Of a stretch of 64,000 nucleotides of DNA, positions 3,300 through 61,663 are shown one piece after another (within the stretch, counting starts at the first letter, position 1; the number at the start of each line of letters is the position of its first letter). The notes beneath the pieces are model-generated. The model saw nothing but the letters and a program-made list of their open reading frames with translations. It did not search any database and was not told where the DNA came from. The stretch is from positions 270,001 to 334,000 of the forward strand of contig VGCE01000001.1 in the NCBI GenBank assembly GCA_016870155.1, read 5' to 3'. The DNA comes from Actinomycetota bacterium. GTDB taxonomy: Bacteria; Actinomycetota; Thermoleophilia; Miltoncostaeales; Miltoncostaeaceae. The position numbers were made by a program, and so were the translations under genes.

Positions 3300-4895
3300 T
3301 CACGCCTCCCGCGCCCCGGCGGTGCTCGGCACGGCGGCGCGTCGCACGCCGTAGTCGAGGCTGTCCACCAAGGCGTCCCACGAGGCGGCGATGACGTTCT
3401 GGTTGACACCCATGGTCGACCAGGTGGACGTGCCGTCGGTGGAGTCGATGAGCACGCGCGTCGTGGCGTCGGTGCCATGGCCCTCGTCGAGGATGCGCAC
3501 CTTGAAGTTGACAAGCGAGATCTGCTCGAGGCCCGGCACGCGACCGGCCAGCGCCTGGCGCAGTGCCCTGTCGAGCGCGTTCACCGGGCCATTGCCCTCG
3601 GCGGTGGCCACGAGGCGCGCGCCGTCGTGGTGCAGGCGAACGGTGGCCTCGGTCATCACCCGGCTGGTCTCGTCGCGCTCTGTGATGACCCGGAATGACT
3701 CGAGCACGAACACCGGCTCATGCACCCCGGCCTCGCGCTCGAGCAGGATCGTGAATGACGCGTCGGCCACCTCGAAGTGGTAGCCCTCATGCTCGAGCTC
3801 CTTAATGCGCGCCAGGATGCGCGGAGCCAGGTCGGGATCGGCCTCGACGTCGATTCCCGCCTCGCGGGCCCTCTCGAGCACCACGTGGCGGCCCGAGAGC
3901 TCGCTCACCTTCATGCCGCGCTCGTTGCCCACCAGCGCGGGGTCGAGGTGCTCGAACGTGCGCGGGTCCGACACCATTCCGGCCACGTGCATTCCCCCCT
4001 TGTGCGCGAAGGCGTTGGCGCCCACGTACGGGGCCCAGGCATCGGGCGGCATGTTGGCGGTCTCGGCGGCCCAGTGCGACAGCCGCGTGAGCTCCTCGAG
4101 GCCGCCGGGCCTCAGTACGTCGAAGCCCATCTTGAGCGCGAGCGACGGCGCGATGGAGATCAGGTTTGCGTTGCCGCAGCGCTCGCCCCAGCCGTTGATG
4201 GTGCCCTGCACCTGCCGGGCGCCCTGCGTGACGGCCGCGAGCGAGTTGGCCACGGCGCACTCGGCGTCGTTGTGGGTGTGGATGCCGATGCGGGCGTCCG
4301 GCAGCGCGGCCACCACCTCACCCGAGATGCGCTCGACGTCCGTGGGCAGCGTTGCGCCGTTGGTGTCGCACAGCACGAGCCACGACGCGCCGTTGGCGTG
4401 CGCGGCCTTCAGGCACTCGATGGCGTAGCCGGGGTGCTCGCGGTAGGCGTCAAAGAAGTGCTCGGCGTCGTAGAAGACGTCCTTGCCCTCTGACAGCAGG
4501 AACGCCACTGACTCGCCGATCATCGCGAGGTTCTCCTCGCGCGACACCTTGGTGACCTTCTGCAGGTGCAGGTCCCAGGTCTTGCCCACGATCGTGGACA
4601 CCGGCGCGAAGCACTCCACCATGATGCGCAAACCCGGGTCTTGGTCGGGCGGGGTGTTGCGCCGGCGCGTCATGCCGAACGCCGCGATGCGGGCGTCGCC
4701 GAGGTCCTCGCACGCGAGCAGGTCGAAGAGCTGGCTGTCCTTGGGGTTGGACGACGGGAAACCCGCCTCCACCACGTCGAAGCCGACGTCGGCGAGCCGC
4801 AGGGCCACCTGCAGCTGCTCCCCCACCGAGAGGCTCATGCCCTCCCGCTGCATGCCGTCGCGCAGCGTGGTGTCATAAAGGAGGATGCGTTCCAT
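3300..4895 (-). CDS. cimA: (R)-citramalate synthase
   Basis: A 531-residue member of the homocitrate/isopropylmalate/citramalate synthase family. The N-terminal TIM barrel has YDTTLRDGMQREGM (residues about 7-20), CDTNGATLP and the metal-binding HTHNDAECAVAN. A C-terminal LeuA-type allosteric domain follows (residues about 400-520). The length, the MQREGM variant and GTINGWGERCGN resemble CimA of the long type rather than LeuA, which is encoded separately nearby. CimA condenses pyruvate and acetyl-CoA, giving 2-ketobutyrate for isoleucine without threonine deaminase. The start ATG shares its A with the ilvE stop (TGATG). Confidence 0.9.
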   Translation of the reverse strand: MERILLYDTTLRDGMQREGMSLSVGEQLQVALRLADVGFDVVEAGFPSSNPKDSQLFDLLACEDLGDARIAAFGMTRRRNTPPDQDPGLRIMVECFAPVSTIVGKTWDLHLQKVTKVSREENLAMIGESVAFLLSEGKDVFYDAEHFFDAYREHPGYAIECLKAAHANGASWLVLCDTNGATLPTDVERISGEVVAALPDARIGIHTHNDAECAVANSLAAVTQGARQVQGTINGWGERCGNANLISIAPSLALKMGFDVLRPGGLEELTRLSHWAAETANMPPDAWAPYVGANAFAHKGGMHVAGMVSDPRTFEHLDPALVGNERGMKVSELSGRHVVLERAREAGIDVEADPDLAPRILARIKELEHEGYHFEVADASFTILLEREAGVHEPVFVLESFRVITERDETSRVMTEATVRLHHDGARLVATAEGNGPVNALDRALRQALAGRVPGLEQISLVNFKVRILDEGHGTDATTRVLIDSTDGTSTWSTMGVNQNVIAASWDALVDSLDYGVRRAAVPSTAGAREA

Positions 4896-9028: not shown

Positions 9029-10603
9029 CTACACGCCGCTCTCGGCCATCCTCTCGGTAGTGTCGGCATTCCTGCTGGCGGTCACCGCGCGCAGGTAGGC
9101 GATGGCGCTGGCCTCCAGCACGTCGGGGGACACCCCCTGGCCGGTGAACTGCCTGCCGTTCAGCTCGCACAGCACGCGGGCCTCGCCCAGGGCGTCGGGG
9201 CCGTCGGTCACCGCCGACACCGAGTACTCCAGCAGCGTGCCCGCCGAGCCCACGGCGGCGTCGATCGCGCCGATCAGCGCGGCTACGGGGCCATCGCCCT
9301 CGGCCTCGCCCGAGAACTCCGTGCCGTCGGTGCTGCGCACGGTCACCTGCGCGCGCGCCTTGTCGCCCGATGCCCCGCTGAACGAGATGTCGCGCAGCTC
9401 CAGCTGGTGCTCGTGGTCAACGCGCATTTCGTCCTCCATCAGCGCCTCGAGGTCCATGGCGGTGAGCTCGCCCTTGCGGTCGGCCACCGCCTTGAACCGG
9501 CGGAAGGCCTCGTTGAGGGCGTCCTTGTCGAGCTCGTAGCCCAGGTCGGTGAGTGCCTGGCGCAGCGCGTGGCGGCCGGAGTGCTTGCCCAGCACCAGCT
9601 CGCTCTGCATCAGCCCCACGCTCTGGGCATCCATGATCTCGTAGGTGAGCGGGTTGGCGAGCACGCCGTGCTGGTGGATTCCCGCCTCGTGCGCGAATGC
9701 GTTGCGGCCCACGATCGCCTTGTTGGGCTGGATCTCATACCCGGTGAGCCGGCTCACCATGCGGCTGGCCTTGGTGATCTCGGTGGTGTGGATTCCCGAC
9801 CACAGCCCGCCGAGGTCCTCGGCGCGCGTGCGCAGGATCATCGCCATCTCCTCGAGGCTGGCGTTGCCCGCGCGCTCGCCGATGCCGTTGACGCACACCT
9901 CCACCTGCCGCGCCCCCACCTCGAGGCCGGCCAGCGAGTTGGCCACGGCCAGGCCCAGGTCATTGTGGCAGTGCACCGACAGCGTCACGTCCTCCAGCGA
10001 CGGCACGCGCTCATAGAGCTCAATGAGCAACCGCTGGAACTCCGTGGGCATCGTGTAACCCACGGTGTCCGGGATGTTGATGGTCCCCGCGCCCTCTACG
10101 ATGGCCGCGCCGATCACCTCGGCCACGAACGCCGGGTCGGACCGCGTGGCGTCCTCGCACGAGAACTCCACGTCGGGGCTCAGGCTCACGGCGAGCTTCA
10201 CGGCGTCGATGGCGGTGGCCAGCACCTGGGGGCGATCCATGCGCAGCTTGTGCGCCATGTGGATGTCGGACGTGGCGATGAAGGTATGGATGCGCGGCTT
10301 CCCTGCGTCGCGCACGCCCTCCCACGCCACGGCGATGTCCTTCTCGTTCGCGCGGGCCAGGCCGGCGATCGTCGGGCCCTCCACCTCACGGGCCACAGCC
10401 TGCACGCCCTCCAGGTCGCCCGGCGACGAGATCGGGAAGCCGGCCTCGATCACGTCCGCCCCGAGGCGCGCGAGCTGCTGGGCGATCTCCACCTTCTCCC
10501 GCAGGTTCAGGTGAATGCGCGGCGACTGCTCCCCATCGCGAAGGGTCGTATCGAAGAACGTGACGCGCTTGGCGTCATCTCGGCTGGCGTCGTCGGCCGG
10601 CAC
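9029..10603 (-). CDS. leuA: 2-isopropylmalate synthase
   Basis: The committed enzyme of leucine synthesis condenses 2-ketoisovalerate with acetyl-CoA. The 524-residue product has the catalytic [17 protein letters not shown] (residues about 16-32), the metal site [31 protein letters not shown], and a C-terminal leucine-binding regulatory domain from about residue 390. It is the long bacterial form. The GTG at 10601-10603 was chosen because an AGGAGG Shine-Dalgarno lies 6 bases upstream. Expression probably depends on the leader described separately, because part of the leader can pair with that Shine-Dalgarno. Confidence 0.95.
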
Positions 10604-10760
10604 GGGGGCCTCCTCCTGGCTCGTGTGGACTGATCCTGTGCCCGGCGCATCCGGGCGTGGGTGTCGAAGCGCTTCCCCTAGCGGGGAAGGAGCAGAAGGG
10701 CGCCCAGCGTGCCGCGACCGGCCAGGAGGTTGGTGTTCGCGGTGACGCACATCGCCCGGC
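10604..10760 (-). promoter_or_regulatory. leuA leader: candidate leucine attenuator / Shine-Dalgarno sequestration
   Basis: In the minus-strand RNA, three pairings are perfect. A 9-nt stretch CCTCCTGGC (10729-10721), inside the leader-peptide codons, is the exact complement of GCCAGGAGG (10620-10612), the leuA Shine-Dalgarno. A 7-bp stem with a 4-nt loop (CTTCCCC/GGGGAAG, 10689-10672) overlaps the last Leu codon and stop of the leader peptide. A second 6-bp hairpin (GCCCGG/CCGGGC, 10656-10640) follows. No U-run follows either hairpin, so control of leuA translation is more likely than factor-independent termination. The mechanism is inferred. Confidence 0.7.
10678..10752 (-). CDS. leuA leader peptide (24 aa, Leu-rich)
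   Basis: A 24-codon reading frame, ATG at 10750-10752 to TAG at 10678-10680, encodes a peptide ending in TLGALLLLPR. Seven of 24 codons are leucine, with four in a row (CTT CTG CTC CTT) just before the stop. It lies 75 bases upstream of leuA and its codons overlap the RNA pairings of the leader, the arrangement expected of an attenuation peptide whose ribosome senses charged tRNA-Leu. The upstream Shine-Dalgarno is weak (GGGCG). Leu-rich leaders before leuA are known in actinobacteria, so family knowledge supports the call. Confidence 0.75.
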   Translation of the reverse strand: MCVTANTNLLAGRGTLGALLLLPR

Positions 10761-10799
10761 AGACTAGCGCACTCGTCGATCTCGGCAACAGCAGGCGCA

Positions 10800-12380
10800 C
10801 TACACGTCGAGTTCGACGAACCACACCTCTGCGTCGGCGCCGTCGGCGATGGCGGCCTGGGTCTCGGGCGGCACCGGGGTGTCCACCGTGACGCCCATGG
10901 TGGCCTGACCCTCGAGCGAGCGGCCCACGGCCATGGACGCGATGTTGATGCCCTGGCCGGCGATCACCGTGCCGACGGTGCCGATCTTGCCCGGCTTGTC
11001 GGCGTAGCGGAGGATTCCCACGTGATCGGCGAGCTCGAGCTCGATCGATTGGCCCAGAACCTCGACCAGGCGCGGGCGCGAGGTGCTGCCCACGGTGGTG
11101 CCGGCCACCGAGACGTCGCCGATCTGCACCTTGAGGCGGCTCGTGTAGTCGCGCGAGACCGACGTGGCTGAATCGCTCCACTCGATGCCGCGCTCGCGGG
11201 CACGGTCGGCGGCGTTCACCATGTTCACGCTCTCCACCGTGTGGCCGGTGAGCGCGCCGGCGAGCACCGCGGTGACGAGCAGCCGGGTGTCGTGCTCGGC
11301 GATCTCGCCCTCGCAGATGACCTCGATGGAGTCGGTGATGCCGCCCGCGATGCCCGCGGCAAGGCGGCCGAGGTGGCCGGCCAGGGGGAGGAAGGGGCCT
11401 ACTGTGGCCATGGTCTCGGCCGATACCACCGGGATGTTGACGGCGCTGGTCACCATGCCACCGGTGAGCGCGGCGGCCACCTGCTCGGCGCATGCCACGC
11501 CCGCGCGCTCCTGCGCCTCGCCGGTGGATGCGCCCAGGTGCGGGGTGACGATGATGCCGTCCACGCCGAAGTACGGGCTCGCGGTGGCGGGCTCCTCGGG
11601 GAACACGTCGATCGCGGCGCCCGCGACCTTGCCGCTCTCGATCGCGGCGACCAGATCGGCCTCGACGATGAGATCGCCGCGGGCGTCGTTGATGATGCGC
11701 ACGCCGTCGCGCATCTTTCCCAGGGCATCCGCGTTGATGAAGCCGCGGGTCTCGGGCGTGGACGCCACGTGCAGGGTGATGAAGTCGCACTCGGGATAGA
11801 GCCCGTCAAGCGACTCGGCCTTCTCCACGCCCATCTCGCGGTAACGGGCGTCGGCCACGAAGGGGTCGTAGGCCACCACCCGCATGCCGAGGCCCATCGC
11901 GCGCTCGGCCACGAGCTGGCCGATGTTGCCGAAGCCGATGACCCCGAGGGTCTTGCCGGTCACCTCGATGCCGCCGAACCTCGCGCGCTCCCAGCGGCCG
12001 TCCACCAGCGCGGAATGCGCCTGCGGGATGTTGCGGGCCTGGGCGAGCATGAGGGCGATGGCGTGCTCGGCCGCGGAGACGGCGTTGGAGCCCGCGGCGT
12101 TCACCACGATGATTCCGCGCTCGGTGGCCGCGGGCACATCCACGTTGTCGACACCCGTGCCGGCGCGACCCACCACCTTCAGGCCGGGCGCGGCGGCGAT
12201 GAGGGCGGCCGTCACCCTGGTGGCGCTGCGCACCACCAGGGCGTCGTAGGGCGCGATGCGCTCGGCCAGCTCGTCGGCAGACCACTGCAGCTCCAGGTCG
12301 ACGTCGCCCACCGCCCGGAGCACCTCGATTCCGGCATCGGCGATCTTCTCGGTGACGAGTATCCGAGGACGGTGATTCAT
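10800..12380 (-). CDS. serA: D-3-phosphoglycerate dehydrogenase (long form)
   Basis: A 526-residue SerA that oxidises 3-phosphoglycerate in the first step of serine synthesis. Visible in order are MNHRPRILVTEKIADAGIE, RAGTGVDNVDVPAATERGI, the NAD-binding GVIGFGNIGQLVAERA, the catalytic Arg region INDARGDLIVEADL, and TPHLGASTGEAQERAG with the catalytic His. Residues about 320-526 form the intervening (ASB) domain and a C-terminal ACT domain, the type that gives serine inhibition in mycobacteria. It lies between ilvC and leuA with 19 bases to ilvC. Confidence 0.95.
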   Translation of the reverse strand: MNHRPRILVTEKIADAGIEVLRAVGDVDLELQWSADELAERIAPYDALVVRSATRVTAALIAAAPGLKVVGRAGTGVDNVDVPAATERGIIVVNAAGSNAVSAAEHAIALMLAQARNIPQAHSALVDGRWERARFGGIEVTGKTLGVIGFGNIGQLVAERAMGLGMRVVAYDPFVADARYREMGVEKAESLDGLYPECDFITLHVASTPETRGFINADALGKMRDGVRIINDARGDLIVEADLVAAIESGKVAGAAIDVFPEEPATASPYFGVDGIIVTPHLGASTGEAQERAGVACAEQVAAALTGGMVTSAVNIPVVSAETMATVGPFLPLAGHLGRLAAGIAGGITDSIEVICEGEIAEHDTRLLVTAVLAGALTGHTVESVNMVNAADRARERGIEWSDSATSVSRDYTSRLKVQIGDVSVAGTTVGSTSRPRLVEVLGQSIELELADHVGILRYADKPGKIGTVGTVIAGQGINIASMAVGRSLEGQATMGVTVDTPVPPETQAAIADGADAEVWFVELDV

Positions 12381-13422: not shown

Positions 13423-13911
13423 CTAGGTGGTCTTGTCGCCGCGGCCGAGTGCCACGACGCCGGTGCGGACCATCTCGACAAGGCCGTTGTTCCGCAGGAG
13501 CTCCTCGAGGTTCTCGAGCTCCGCGGTGGTGCCGGTGGCCTGGATGATCAGTGACTCGCTCGTCACATCCACGATCTCACCCTTGAAGATGTCCACGAGG
13601 GCGAGGATGTCGCTGCGCGAGGTGCCCACCGTGGTCACCTTGAACAGCCCGAGTTCACGAGCGACCATGTTCTCGGGGTCGAGGTCGCGCACCTTGATCA
13701 CGTTCACGAGCTTGTCGAGCTGCTTGGTGATCTGCTCCACGGGGAAGCGCGAGGCGTCCACGGTGATGGTCATGCGCGAGCGGTGCTCATCCTCGGTGGG
13801 GCTCACCGCGAGCGAGTCGATGTTGTAGCCACGTCGCGTGAACATCCCGGCGACGCGCGAGAGCACGCCCGGCTTGTTCTCCACGAGGACGGAGAGGGTG
13901 TGCTGGGTCAC
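13423..13911 (-). CDS. ilvN: Acetolactate synthase regulatory (small) subunit
   Basis: A 162-residue ACT-domain protein that binds valine and regulates acetohydroxyacid synthase. The ACT fold starts TLSVLVENKPGVLSRVAGMFTRRGYNI at residues 4-30, and the second half (GLFKVTTVGTSRSDILALVDIF) is typical of IlvN/IlvH. The GTG at 13909-13911 fits the family N-terminus. A TATGCT -10 box (13920-13925) lies 8 bases upstream, implying a leaderless mRNA and a promoter of its own. The catalytic partner ilvB is not upstream as usual and is not elsewhere in the window. Confidence 0.94.
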   Translation of the reverse strand: MTQHTLSVLVENKPGVLSRVAGMFTRRGYNIDSLAVSPTEDEHRSRMTITVDASRFPVEQITKQLDKLVNVIKVRDLDPENMVARELGLFKVTTVGTSRSDILALVDIFKGEIVDVTSESLIIQATGTTAELENLEELLRNNGLVEMVRTGVVALGRGDKTT

Positions 13912-13931
13912 GGCGCGGGAGCATACCCCAC

Positions 13932-14063
13932 GCCGGGGCACGATCGGCCCCGGGGCATTTCCGCAGGAAGGACCAGTGCCGCCATGGCTCCGGGGCGAAG
14001 CCCCGGTTCCCCACGCTGCCCCGGCGACCGGAGGAATTGCCCCGGGGCCGATCGTGCCCCGGC
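13932..14063. repeat. 26-bp perfect inverted repeat flanking an 80-bp spacer
   Basis: The arm 13932-13957 is the exact reverse complement of 14038-14063 over 26 bases, and similarity continues imperfectly for about 10 more bases inward. The spacer holds a further small hairpin, CCGGGGC-GAA-GCCCCGG (13991-14007). The unit fills the gap between the end of gatB and the ilvN promoter; its left arm begins 7 bases from the ilvN -10 box. It could be a miniature element, an excision scar or a gatB terminator. No second copy was seen in this window. Confidence 0.8.
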
Positions 14064-60819: not shown

Positions 60820-60855
60820 CTCCCGCCCCCGAAGGCGGGGGTGGTAGAGTCACCG

Positions 60856-60943
60856 CGAACAGGGGAGCCGCTTCAGCGGCTGAGAGGAGGCACACGGCCT
60901 CGACCCTCTGAACCTGATCTGGGTAATGCCAGCGAAGGGAGCG
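60856..60943 (+). ncRNA. TPP riboswitch (THI element)
   Basis: The conserved blocks are all present: GGGGAGCCG, then a GCCGCTTCAGCGGC hairpin, CTGAGAGG, ACCCTCTGAACCTGATC, and TGGGTAATGCCAGCGAAGGGAG. It lies directly before an ABC transporter operon; its 3' end, GAAGGGAG, is also the Shine-Dalgarno of the first gene 6 bases before the GTG. This implies control of translation initiation: TPP binding would hide the ribosome site. A CCCGCC/GGCGGG hairpin (60822-60839) just upstream separates it from gloA. Confidence 0.96.
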
Positions 60944-60946
60944 CAT

Positions 60947-61663
60947 GTGCCCCACGGGCACGGCATACGGGCAGTCGACCTGCACCTGGCGCTGGGCGAC
61001 CGCCCGCGCGTGCCGGTGCTCGACGGCGTGGACTTCGTGACGCGCGCCGGGGAGACCACGGCCATCATCGGCCCGTCGGGGTGTGGCAAGAGCACCCTGC
61101 TCGACGTGCTGGCCGGGCTCACCCCGCCCGATGCCGGGCACGCCGACCCGGGTGGCCCCGTGGCGCTGATGCCCCAGGGCGACGCGCTCATGCCCTGGCT
61201 CACCCTGCGCGAGAACGTGGCGATGGGCGCGCGGCTCGCGGGCCTGGCCGCCCATGAGGCCGACGAGCGCGCCGACGGCGCCATCGCGCTGCTGGGGCTG
61301 GCGGGGTTCGGCGATCACTACCCCCATGCGCTGTCGGGTGGCATGCGCCAACGGGCGGCGCTCGCCCGCACCGCGCTGGCCGGCCGCGCCACGTGGCTGC
61401 TCGACGAGCCCTTCGGCGCCCTCGACGCCCTCACGCGCGTGGAAATGCACAACGTGCTGGGCGATCTCCGCCGCGCCGAGCAGCCAACGATCCTGCTTGT
61501 CACGCATGACGTGGCCGAGGCCGTGGCCCTGTGCGAGCGCATCCTCGTGGCCTCCCCGCGCCCCATGCGCATCGTCGACGACATCCGGGTGGGTGATGCC
61601 GACCCGCCTGCCGTAGCCGCGTCGGTGCTGGCATCGCTGCGCCAGGCGGGAGCGCTCGCATGA
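60947..61663 (+). CDS. thiZ: Thiamine-precursor ABC transporter ATPase (ThiZ-like)
   Basis: A 238-residue ABC ATPase. Walker A is IIGPSGCGKSTLLDVLAG, Q-loop LMPQGDALMPWLTLRENV, signature LSGGMRQRAALARTAL, Walker B WLLDEPFGALDALTR, H-loop VTHDVAEA; the closest groups are nitrate/sulfonate/taurine- and HMP-type importers. The TPP riboswitch and NMT1-type binding protein make a pyrimidine precursor the likely cargo. The GTG at 60947 is chosen because GGGAG lies 6 bases upstream; an ATG at 60926 lies inside the riboswitch. Confidence 0.9.
   Translation: MPHGHGIRAVDLHLALGDRPRVPVLDGVDFVTRAGETTAIIGPSGCGKSTLLDVLAGLTPPDAGHADPGGPVALMPQGDALMPWLTLRENVAMGARLAGLAAHEADERADGAIALLGLAGFGDHYPHALSGGMRQRAALARTALAGRATWLLDEPFGALDALTRVEMHNVLGDLRRAEQPTILLVTHDVAEAVALCERILVASPRPMRIVDDIRVGDADPPAVAASVLASLRQAGALA

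What the first reader, a model, noticed from the sequence alone, without database searches (positions are those of the whole stretch)
10604..10760. Leu-rich leader peptide whose codons mask the leuA ribosome site
A 24-codon frame with seven Leu codons, four consecutive, precedes leuA. A 9-nt stretch inside it (10729-10721) is the exact complement of the leuA Shine-Dalgarno region (10620-10612), and a 7-bp hairpin overlaps the Leu run and stop codon. A ribosome moving through or stalling in the leader would change which pairings form. There is no U-run, so the output is probably leuA translation, not transcription termination.
Basis: partly seen in the sequence, partly recalled or inferred. Interest (0 to 1): 0.7.

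Follow-up and report, generated by a model that had tools for sequence, protein, structure and literature searches.

The report
Leaderless leucine attenuator upstream of leuA
In a whole class of little-studied soil and freshwater bacteria, a tiny leucine-rich peptide gene sits before the first leucine-making gene, and its leucine codons can pair with and hide that gene's ribosome site, a probable leucine-sensing switch of a kind already known in other Actinobacteria but of a form I found no description of.

Summary
A 24-codon ORF (10752-10678, minus strand; MCVTANTNLLAGRGTLGALLLLPR*) precedes leuA. The exact 9-nt complement and the 7-bp stop-codon hairpin lie at the stated coordinates, and there is no U-run. 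The host is a Miltoncostaeales bacterium (Thermoleophilia, Actinomycetota). The 9-nt match alone is weak: shuffles reach it in about 2.5% of cases, synonymous recoding in 40%. Comparative evidence is strong. The leader occurs across the class: a covariance model hits 142 of 299 class genomes and, in the phylum sample, only genomes of this class. It precedes two non-orthologous leuA types and, once, leuS. Its hairpins covary; its Leu-run codons are frozen while leuA's Leu codons drift. In 45 of 46 leaders a TANNNT box lies 5-11 nt before a leader start, so the leader is probably leaderless. Own leader/leuA-start pairs complement better than swapped ones (0/2000 permutations). Best reading: ribosome-mediated translational attenuation, a Thermoleophilia variant of the Actinobacterial LEU-type leuA leader (Seliverstov 2005). 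Regulation was not tested experimentally, and single-ribosome modelling separates stalling from termination only weakly.

The parts
10783..10788 (-). Probable -35 hexamer TTGCCG
   Evidence: Read from sequence; 16-nt spacer to the -10. No strict sigma-70 consensus hit in the scan.
10761..10766 (-). Probable -10 box TAGTCT, 8 nt before the leader ATG, implying a transcript that starts at or near the leader ATG
   Evidence: TANNNT 5-11 nt before a candidate leader start in 45 of 46 class leaders, 2.5 expected.
10678..10752 (-). Leader peptide ORF, 24 codons, MCVTANTNLLAGRGTLGALLLLPR*, probably leaderless
   Evidence: conserved in genus, family and class.
10738..10742 (-). 5' arm of internal leader hairpin P0 (CCGCG), partner CGCGG at 10716-10712; its loop carries the 9-nt anti-SD, so P0 plus the 9-nt pairing would be an H-type pseudoknot
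   Evidence: Invariant in the genus; comparable stems in other family genera but not clearly above shuffles.
10721..10729 (-).
   Evidence: 9/9 pairs kept in 13 distinct congeneric sequences (7 never vary, 2 change C-G to U-G); probability about 0 in the nested equilibrium fold.
10692..10699 (-). Leu-run anti-SD (CCTTCTGC, codons 18-21), predicted main partner of the leuA SD
   Evidence: pair probabilities about 1 with 10620-10612 except a shared G at the bulge; codons GCC CTT CTG CTC identical in all 14 congeners, against 1 of 36 Leu columns in leuA.
10672..10689 (-). Hairpin H1 (CTTCCCC-GCTA-GGGGAAG) holding the last Leu codon, Pro and the stop codon
   Evidence: near-universal in class leaders; compensatory CTT..AAG / CTC..GAG and a C-G to G-C swap in L051.
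10640..10656 (-). Hairpin H2 (GCCCGG-ATGCG-CCGGGC)
   Evidence: 6 of 13 sequences carry the compensated C-G to G-C swap; G+C-rich hairpins at the same place in other families.
10612..10620 (-). leuA Shine-Dalgarno region GCCAGGAGG, sequestered
   Evidence: opening energy of the start region 22.5 kcal/mol against 15.7 +/- 2.9 for shuffled upstream sequence (4/200 as high).
9029..10603 (-). leuA, 2-isopropylmalate synthase, the regulated gene; leuC, leuD and leuB follow

Best explanation
This is a leucine-responsive, ribosome-mediated translational attenuator. Transcription probably starts at the leader ATG (10752), so ribosomes load on the leaderless end of the mRNA and read the Leu-rich ORF. 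With ample charged Leu-tRNA, ribosomes finish and leave. The Leu-codon run (10699-10692) then pairs with the leuA SD (10620-10612), the stop-codon hairpin H1 and H2 form inside the enclosed region, and leuA initiation is hindered. When leucine is short, a ribosome held on the Leu codons, perhaps with a second queued behind it on the upstream anti-SD at 10729-10721, occupies the masking strand and frees the SD, so leuA, and by coupling the following leuCDB genes, is translated. Shown by sequence comparison: the anatomy, its class-wide conservation, base-pair compensation in H1 and H2, selection on leader/start-region complementarity, nucleotide-level freezing of the Leu run, and association with leucine genes only among the loci inspected. 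Inferred: leaderless transcription, stalling, direction of regulation, and coupling to leuCDB.
For: Conservation and prevalence: 142/299 class genomes, almost always one copy; 18/296 in a phylum sample, all of this class. Gene association: 40 further loci with model hits inspected: 38 have it before TIGR00973-type leuA, 1 before a leuA of the other (TIGR00970) type, 1 before a leuS-leuA pair; also L165, same leader before TIGR00970-type leuA. Hairpin covariation. Leader x start-region complementarity: own -19.0 against swapped -16.5 kcal/mol for the leader 5' part and -16.3 against -14.9 for the Leu run, 0/2000 permutations each; control upstream segment 299/2000. In other families the leader start pairs with the leuA start (CATGTCGTTCC / GGAACGACATG): 59.3% standard pairs against 50.4% shuffled, 0/5000. 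Leu-run codons frozen. Leaderless promoter. SD paired with the Leu run in the window; SD mostly paired in 31 of 41 leaders, 23 of them mainly with leader sequence. leuA start region harder to open than with shuffled upstream sequence, p = 0.0009 over 38 genera. No U-run after H1.
Against: The modelled benefit of a ribosome on the Leu run is no larger with the native downstream region than with swapped ones (3.5 against 2.8 kcal/mol, p = 0.53): any CU-rich Leu run pairs with any SD. In the window a single ribosome on the Leu run (12.3-16.5 kcal/mol) is little different from one at the stop codon (16.5), and queued ribosomes open the site in both cases, so sensing would rest on dwell time. P(SD paired) over genera is not above shuffles (0.71 against 0.65, p = 0.14). 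Related sequences inflate swap tests. For S. coelicolor leuA, mutations in the leader peptide had some effect but one not consistent with classical attenuation, and the LEU-element authors therefore preferred a protein-binding site (PMC1262725). No expression or TSS data exist for this organism here.
Confidence: 0.7

Rival explanations
1. Transcriptional attenuation: H1 (or H2), or Rho acting on the unprotected stretch between leader stop and leuA, terminates transcription when the leader is read to its stop; a stalled ribosome prevents this.
For: H1 is the most conserved structure and holds the stop codon and last Leu codon. Leucine leaders with U-run terminators exist in related Actinobacteria: L161-L164 before leuA, S. 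lividans leuS (PMC8079986). In f6 genomes a T-rich stretch follows H2.
Against: No U-run after H1 in the window or, on average, in the class (mean 1.9 T in 10 nt). Leader/leuA-start complementarity is under selection, which termination alone would not require.
Confidence: 0.15
2. Protein-binding site: the leader RNA is bound by a regulatory protein, as proposed for the LEU element (ML1624-like DEAD-box protein), and the peptide is incidental.
For: PMC1262725 argued this from S. coelicolor mutants and phyletic pattern. H1 and H2 are highly conserved structures.
Against: The Leu run is kept in every leader while hairpin loops and H2 sequences vary between families. The element precedes leucine genes of three families, including leuS, as expected of a leucyl-tRNA sensor.
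Confidence: 0.08
3. Unregulated start-region masking: a short upstream ORF used for translational coupling or loading, with Leu-rich sequence and anti-SD complementarity as by-products of CU-rich Leu codons.
For: Synonymous recodings give a 9-nt complement in 40% of cases; swapped downstream regions show the same modelled ribosome effect.
Against: Leu run invariant with a rare CTT codon fixed in all 14 congeners; co-variation of leader and leuA start; association with leuA/leuS only, in the loci inspected.
Confidence: 0.07

Closest known systems
LEU element of Actinobacterial leuA (Seliverstov et al. 2005, PMC1262725)
   Same: Short ORF with a Leu run before leuA; Leu-codon run pairs with the leuA SD as a base stem enclosing further helices; no terminator.
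   Different: The mycobacterial form (L151-L154) has a large CCGCGACGGGG..CCCGTCGCGG helix with a loop pairing downstream (pseudoknot) and peptide ...VLLLGRRDGV*. Here H1 is a 6-7 bp stop-codon hairpin with a 4-nt loop, peptide ...LLLLPR* or ...LLLPLRGE*, G+C-rich H2; a pseudoknot is possible (P0 + 9-nt) but not shown. It precedes a different leuA family in most genomes.
S. lividans LeuL1 leader (MRFGLLLLSCRGEGL*, PMC8079986)
   Same: Leaderless Leu-rich leader before leuA lacking a typical Rho-independent terminator.
   Different: Unlike peptide and hairpin sequence; there transcription was mapped by RNA-seq, here it is predicted.
Polycysteine leaderless short ORFs of mycobacteria (Canestrari et al. 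2020; cited through PMC13236596 and PMC9094748, original not held)
   Same: Leaderless amino-acid-rich uORF attenuating a biosynthetic operon; cited as regulation by translation attenuation.
   Different: Senses cysteine; different genes and sequence.
Classical leu/ilv transcription attenuators with U-run terminator (L161-L164; ilvBNC of Corynebacterium)
   Same: Leu-rich or BCAA-rich leader peptide before the operon, stalled-ribosome logic.
   Different: Those have a G+C-rich terminator with a T-rich tail; this element has none.

Membership tests
LEU element (Actinobacterial leuA leader) | Upstream ORF with a run of Leu codons before leuA | tested here: met
LEU element (Actinobacterial leuA leader) | Base stem: Leu run pairs with the leuA SD | tested here: met
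   (window); for the class; in part of the class another leader segment pairs instead.
LEU element (Actinobacterial leuA leader) | Conserved pseudoknot inside the base stem | tested here: inconclusive
   H1 loop is only 4 nt. P0 (10742-10738/10716-10712) plus the 9-nt pairing would form an H-type pseudoknot, but P0 is not clearly above shuffles in other genera and its loop pairs with the SD, unlike the mycobacterial helix.
LEU element (Actinobacterial leuA leader) | Homology of the conserved helices with the mycobacterial/streptomycete element | tested here: not met
   Model R1 matches no sampled genome outside this class (strict filters); helix sequences differ.
Translational attenuator with leader peptide | Leader coding sequence sequesters the downstream SD | tested here: met
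   By prediction and comparison.
Translational attenuator with leader peptide | Ribosome stalling on the leader raises downstream translation | not testable with these tools
   Modelling only; single-ribosome effect not specific.
Leaderless leader peptide | -10 box immediately upstream of the leader start, no room for an SD | tested here: met
   45 of 46 leaders; TSS itself not mapped.
Rho-independent transcription attenuator | Terminator hairpin followed by a U-run | tested here: not met
T-box, riboswitch or other Rfam leader | Covariance-model match | tested here: not met
   no Rfam 15 family at gathering score near leuA; the only weak hit is a chance CRISPR-repeat match on the other strand.

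The most novel reading that the evidence does not exclude
A class-wide leucine switch in which the 5' end of a leaderless leader pairs directly with the start region of the regulated gene (start-to-start pairing in Solirubrobacterales-type leaders) and two separate anti-SDs in the leader must both be covered, so that only a queue of ribosomes behind a leucine stall opens leuA: a dwell-time or ribosome-queue sensor rather than a simple stalled-ribosome switch.
Probability: 0.15. Interest if true: 0.65.

Novelty: new variant of a known kind. Interest (0 to 1): 0.42.

Why it matters
The mechanism of the Actinobacterial leuA leader has been unsettled since 2005, because Streptomyces mutants did not behave like a classical attenuator. 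A second, differently built leader in a deep class, with no terminator, a probable leaderless start, and evidence that leader and leuA start region co-evolve, favours translational control by a leucine-sensing ribosome. The same leader before two unrelated leuA families and before leuS points to leucyl-tRNA as the signal. It is absent from Rfam, so it is probably unannotated in Thermoleophilia genomes. The biology is of a known type, so interest is moderate.

Tried and rejected
Rfam search at gathering and relaxed thresholds: nothing relevant. The 9-nt match as stand-alone evidence: rejected as weak, 40% of synonymous recodings reach it. The 9-nt match as the main SD mask: nested fold gives it probability about 0. 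Ribosome-footprint modelling as proof of the switch: first looked convincing (Leu-run 10.2 against free 13.4 kcal/mol, p = 7e-8), but swapped downstream regions give the same drop, so it is not specific. SD pairing probability over genera against shuffles: not significant. Internal hairpin P0 as class-wide: weak. Intrinsic terminator: none. Papers: no held paper has both 'Thermoleophilia' and 'leader peptide'; Canestrari 2020 is not held.

Full report
What is there. On the minus strand, between serA (ends at 10800) and leuA (GTG at 10603), lies a 24-codon ORF, 10752-10678, MCVTANTNLLAGRGTLGALLLLPR*. leuA is a TIGR00973-type 2-isopropylmalate synthase. Titles of the closest records place the host in Miltoncostaeales, Thermoleophilia. 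Rfam has no matching family.

Is the 9-nt match more than chance? Alone, barely. Dinucleotide shuffles reach 9 nt in 131 and 122 of 5000 trials, and synonymous recodings of the same peptide in 2011 of 5000. Leu codons such as CTC and CTG are by nature complementary to an SD, so any Leu-rich leader has such matches.

Conservation in the genus. In 14 congeneric leaders (13 distinct) all 22 pairs of three helices are kept in every sequence: the 9-nt stem (7 pairs invariant, 2 C-G to U-G), H1 (one pair C-G to U-A in 3 sequences) and H2 (one pair C-G to G-C in 6 sequences). The covariation score exceeds all 500 column shuffles and all slid controls. A scan for every helix kept in all 13 sequences ranks these three first. 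Leu codons 19-21 (CTT CTG CTC) and codon 10 are identical in all 14, whereas only 1 of 36 Leu columns in leuA keeps one codon and none keeps CTT. The RNA, not just the peptide, is constrained.

Conservation in the class. The same architecture occurs before leuA across the Thermoleophilia families sampled: short ORF ending LLLLPR*, LLLPLRGE* or similar, H1 with the stop codon in or just after it, a second G+C-rich hairpin, and leuA starting 73-110 nt downstream of the H1 loop. The H1 pairs stand in nearly all of 58 aligned sequences, with compensatory changes. A covariance model finds it in 142 of 299 class genomes under strict filters, usually once per genome; in a 296-genome phylum sample its 18 matches are all in this class. 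Of 40 further loci with hits that were inspected, 38 have it before a TIGR00973-type leuA, one before a TIGR00970-type leuA and one before a leuS followed by a TIGR00970-type leuA; a further family has the leader before a TIGR00970-type leuA (L165). The leader therefore goes with leucine genes whatever their ancestry.

Leaderless start. In 45 of 46 leaders a TANNNT box lies 5-11 nt before a possible leader start, against 2.5 expected. In the window it is TAGTCT at 10766-10761, 8 nt before the ATG, with TTGCCG 16 nt further up. S. lividans leuL1 and other Actinobacterial leaders are leaderless by RNA-seq (PMC8079986). The regulatory RNA is thus probably the 149 nt from 10752 to the leuA start.

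Leader and leuA start co-evolve. With one genome per genus (43), the leader 5' part pairs with its own leuA start region at -19.0 kcal/mol on average, against -16.5 with swapped ones; the Leu run at -16.3 against -14.9; both 0 of 2000 permutations. An upstream control segment is not significant (299/2000). In Solirubrobacterales-type leaders the leader start and leuA start are complementary to each other (CATGTCGTTCC / GGAACGACATG), 59.3% standard pairs against 50.4% when partners are shuffled, 0 of 5000. Shared ancestry inflates such tests, so they support rather than prove.

What masks the SD here. The equilibrium fold of the predicted transcript pairs the SD with the Leu run (10699-10692), not with 10729-10721, and the leuA start region costs 22.5 kcal/mol to open, against 15.7 +/- 2.9 for shuffled upstream sequence (4/200). 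Over 38 genera the opening energy is also above shuffles (13.0 against 11.3, p = 0.0009), though SD pairing probability is not. The 9-nt stretch lies in the loop of a genus-invariant CCGCG/CGCGG hairpin, so it could act as a pseudoknot partner that nested folding cannot see.

Mechanism and its limits. A ribosome on the Leu run lowers the modelled cost of opening the leuA start region, but swapping in other genomes' downstream regions gives the same drop. In the window, one ribosome on the Leu run (12.3-16.5 kcal/mol) hardly differs from one at the stop (16.5), while a queued pair opens the site (9.6-12.9). So the anatomy of translational attenuation is well supported; that stalling rather than simple passage is the signal is inferred from the Leu run and the gene set.

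Comparison with the known. Seliverstov et al. (2005) described the LEU element: Leu-run ORF before leuA, Leu run pairing with the leuA SD, a conserved pseudoknot, mechanism unknown. The window element works like a LEU element and is best called a Thermoleophilia variant. Strict membership is unproven because the pseudoknot test was inconclusive and no sequence homology of the helices was found. Acidimicrobiia-like relatives (L161-L164) instead carry a U-run terminator after a Leu-rich leader (their taxonomy is my guess from the sequences).

Noticed in passing
L222 (G050:C85), 5412-2830 and upstream: The leucine leader precedes leuS, followed by a TIGR00970-type leuA, so in this genome it heads a leucyl-tRNA synthetase / leuA pair.
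   Followed up: yes
L165 and L243: The same leader stands before a TIGR00970-type leuA in two families, which suggests non-orthologous replacement of the gene beneath a kept leader.
   Followed up: partly
L161-L164, about 150 nt upstream of leuA: Other Actinomycetota have ...LLLLT* or ...LLLLM* leaders followed by a G+C-rich hairpin and T-run, an apparent true transcription attenuator of leuA.
   Followed up: no
L223:180-330 (G326:C50): A second, partly degenerate copy of the leader 1.1 kb upstream of the leuA leader, not followed by an intact leuA.
   Followed up: partly
L008 both ends (G001:C75:80-180 and 490-590): Two near-identical leader copies in opposite orientation at a contig end, probably an assembly artefact.
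   Followed up: no
window 13423-13941 and G000:C9:46711-48402: ilvN and ilvC lie in the leu cluster, but ilvB is on another contig with no obvious Leu-rich leader close to it.
   Followed up: partly
window 60851-60957: TPP riboswitch on the plus strand (Rfam RF00059, 69.4 bits).
   Followed up: no
L049, L052 (f6 genomes): In this lower-G+C family a T-rich stretch follows the second hairpin, so termination may contribute there.
   Followed up: no
window 3378-4892: A LeuA paralogue (33% identity to LeuA), probably citramalate synthase or a related enzyme.
   Followed up: no
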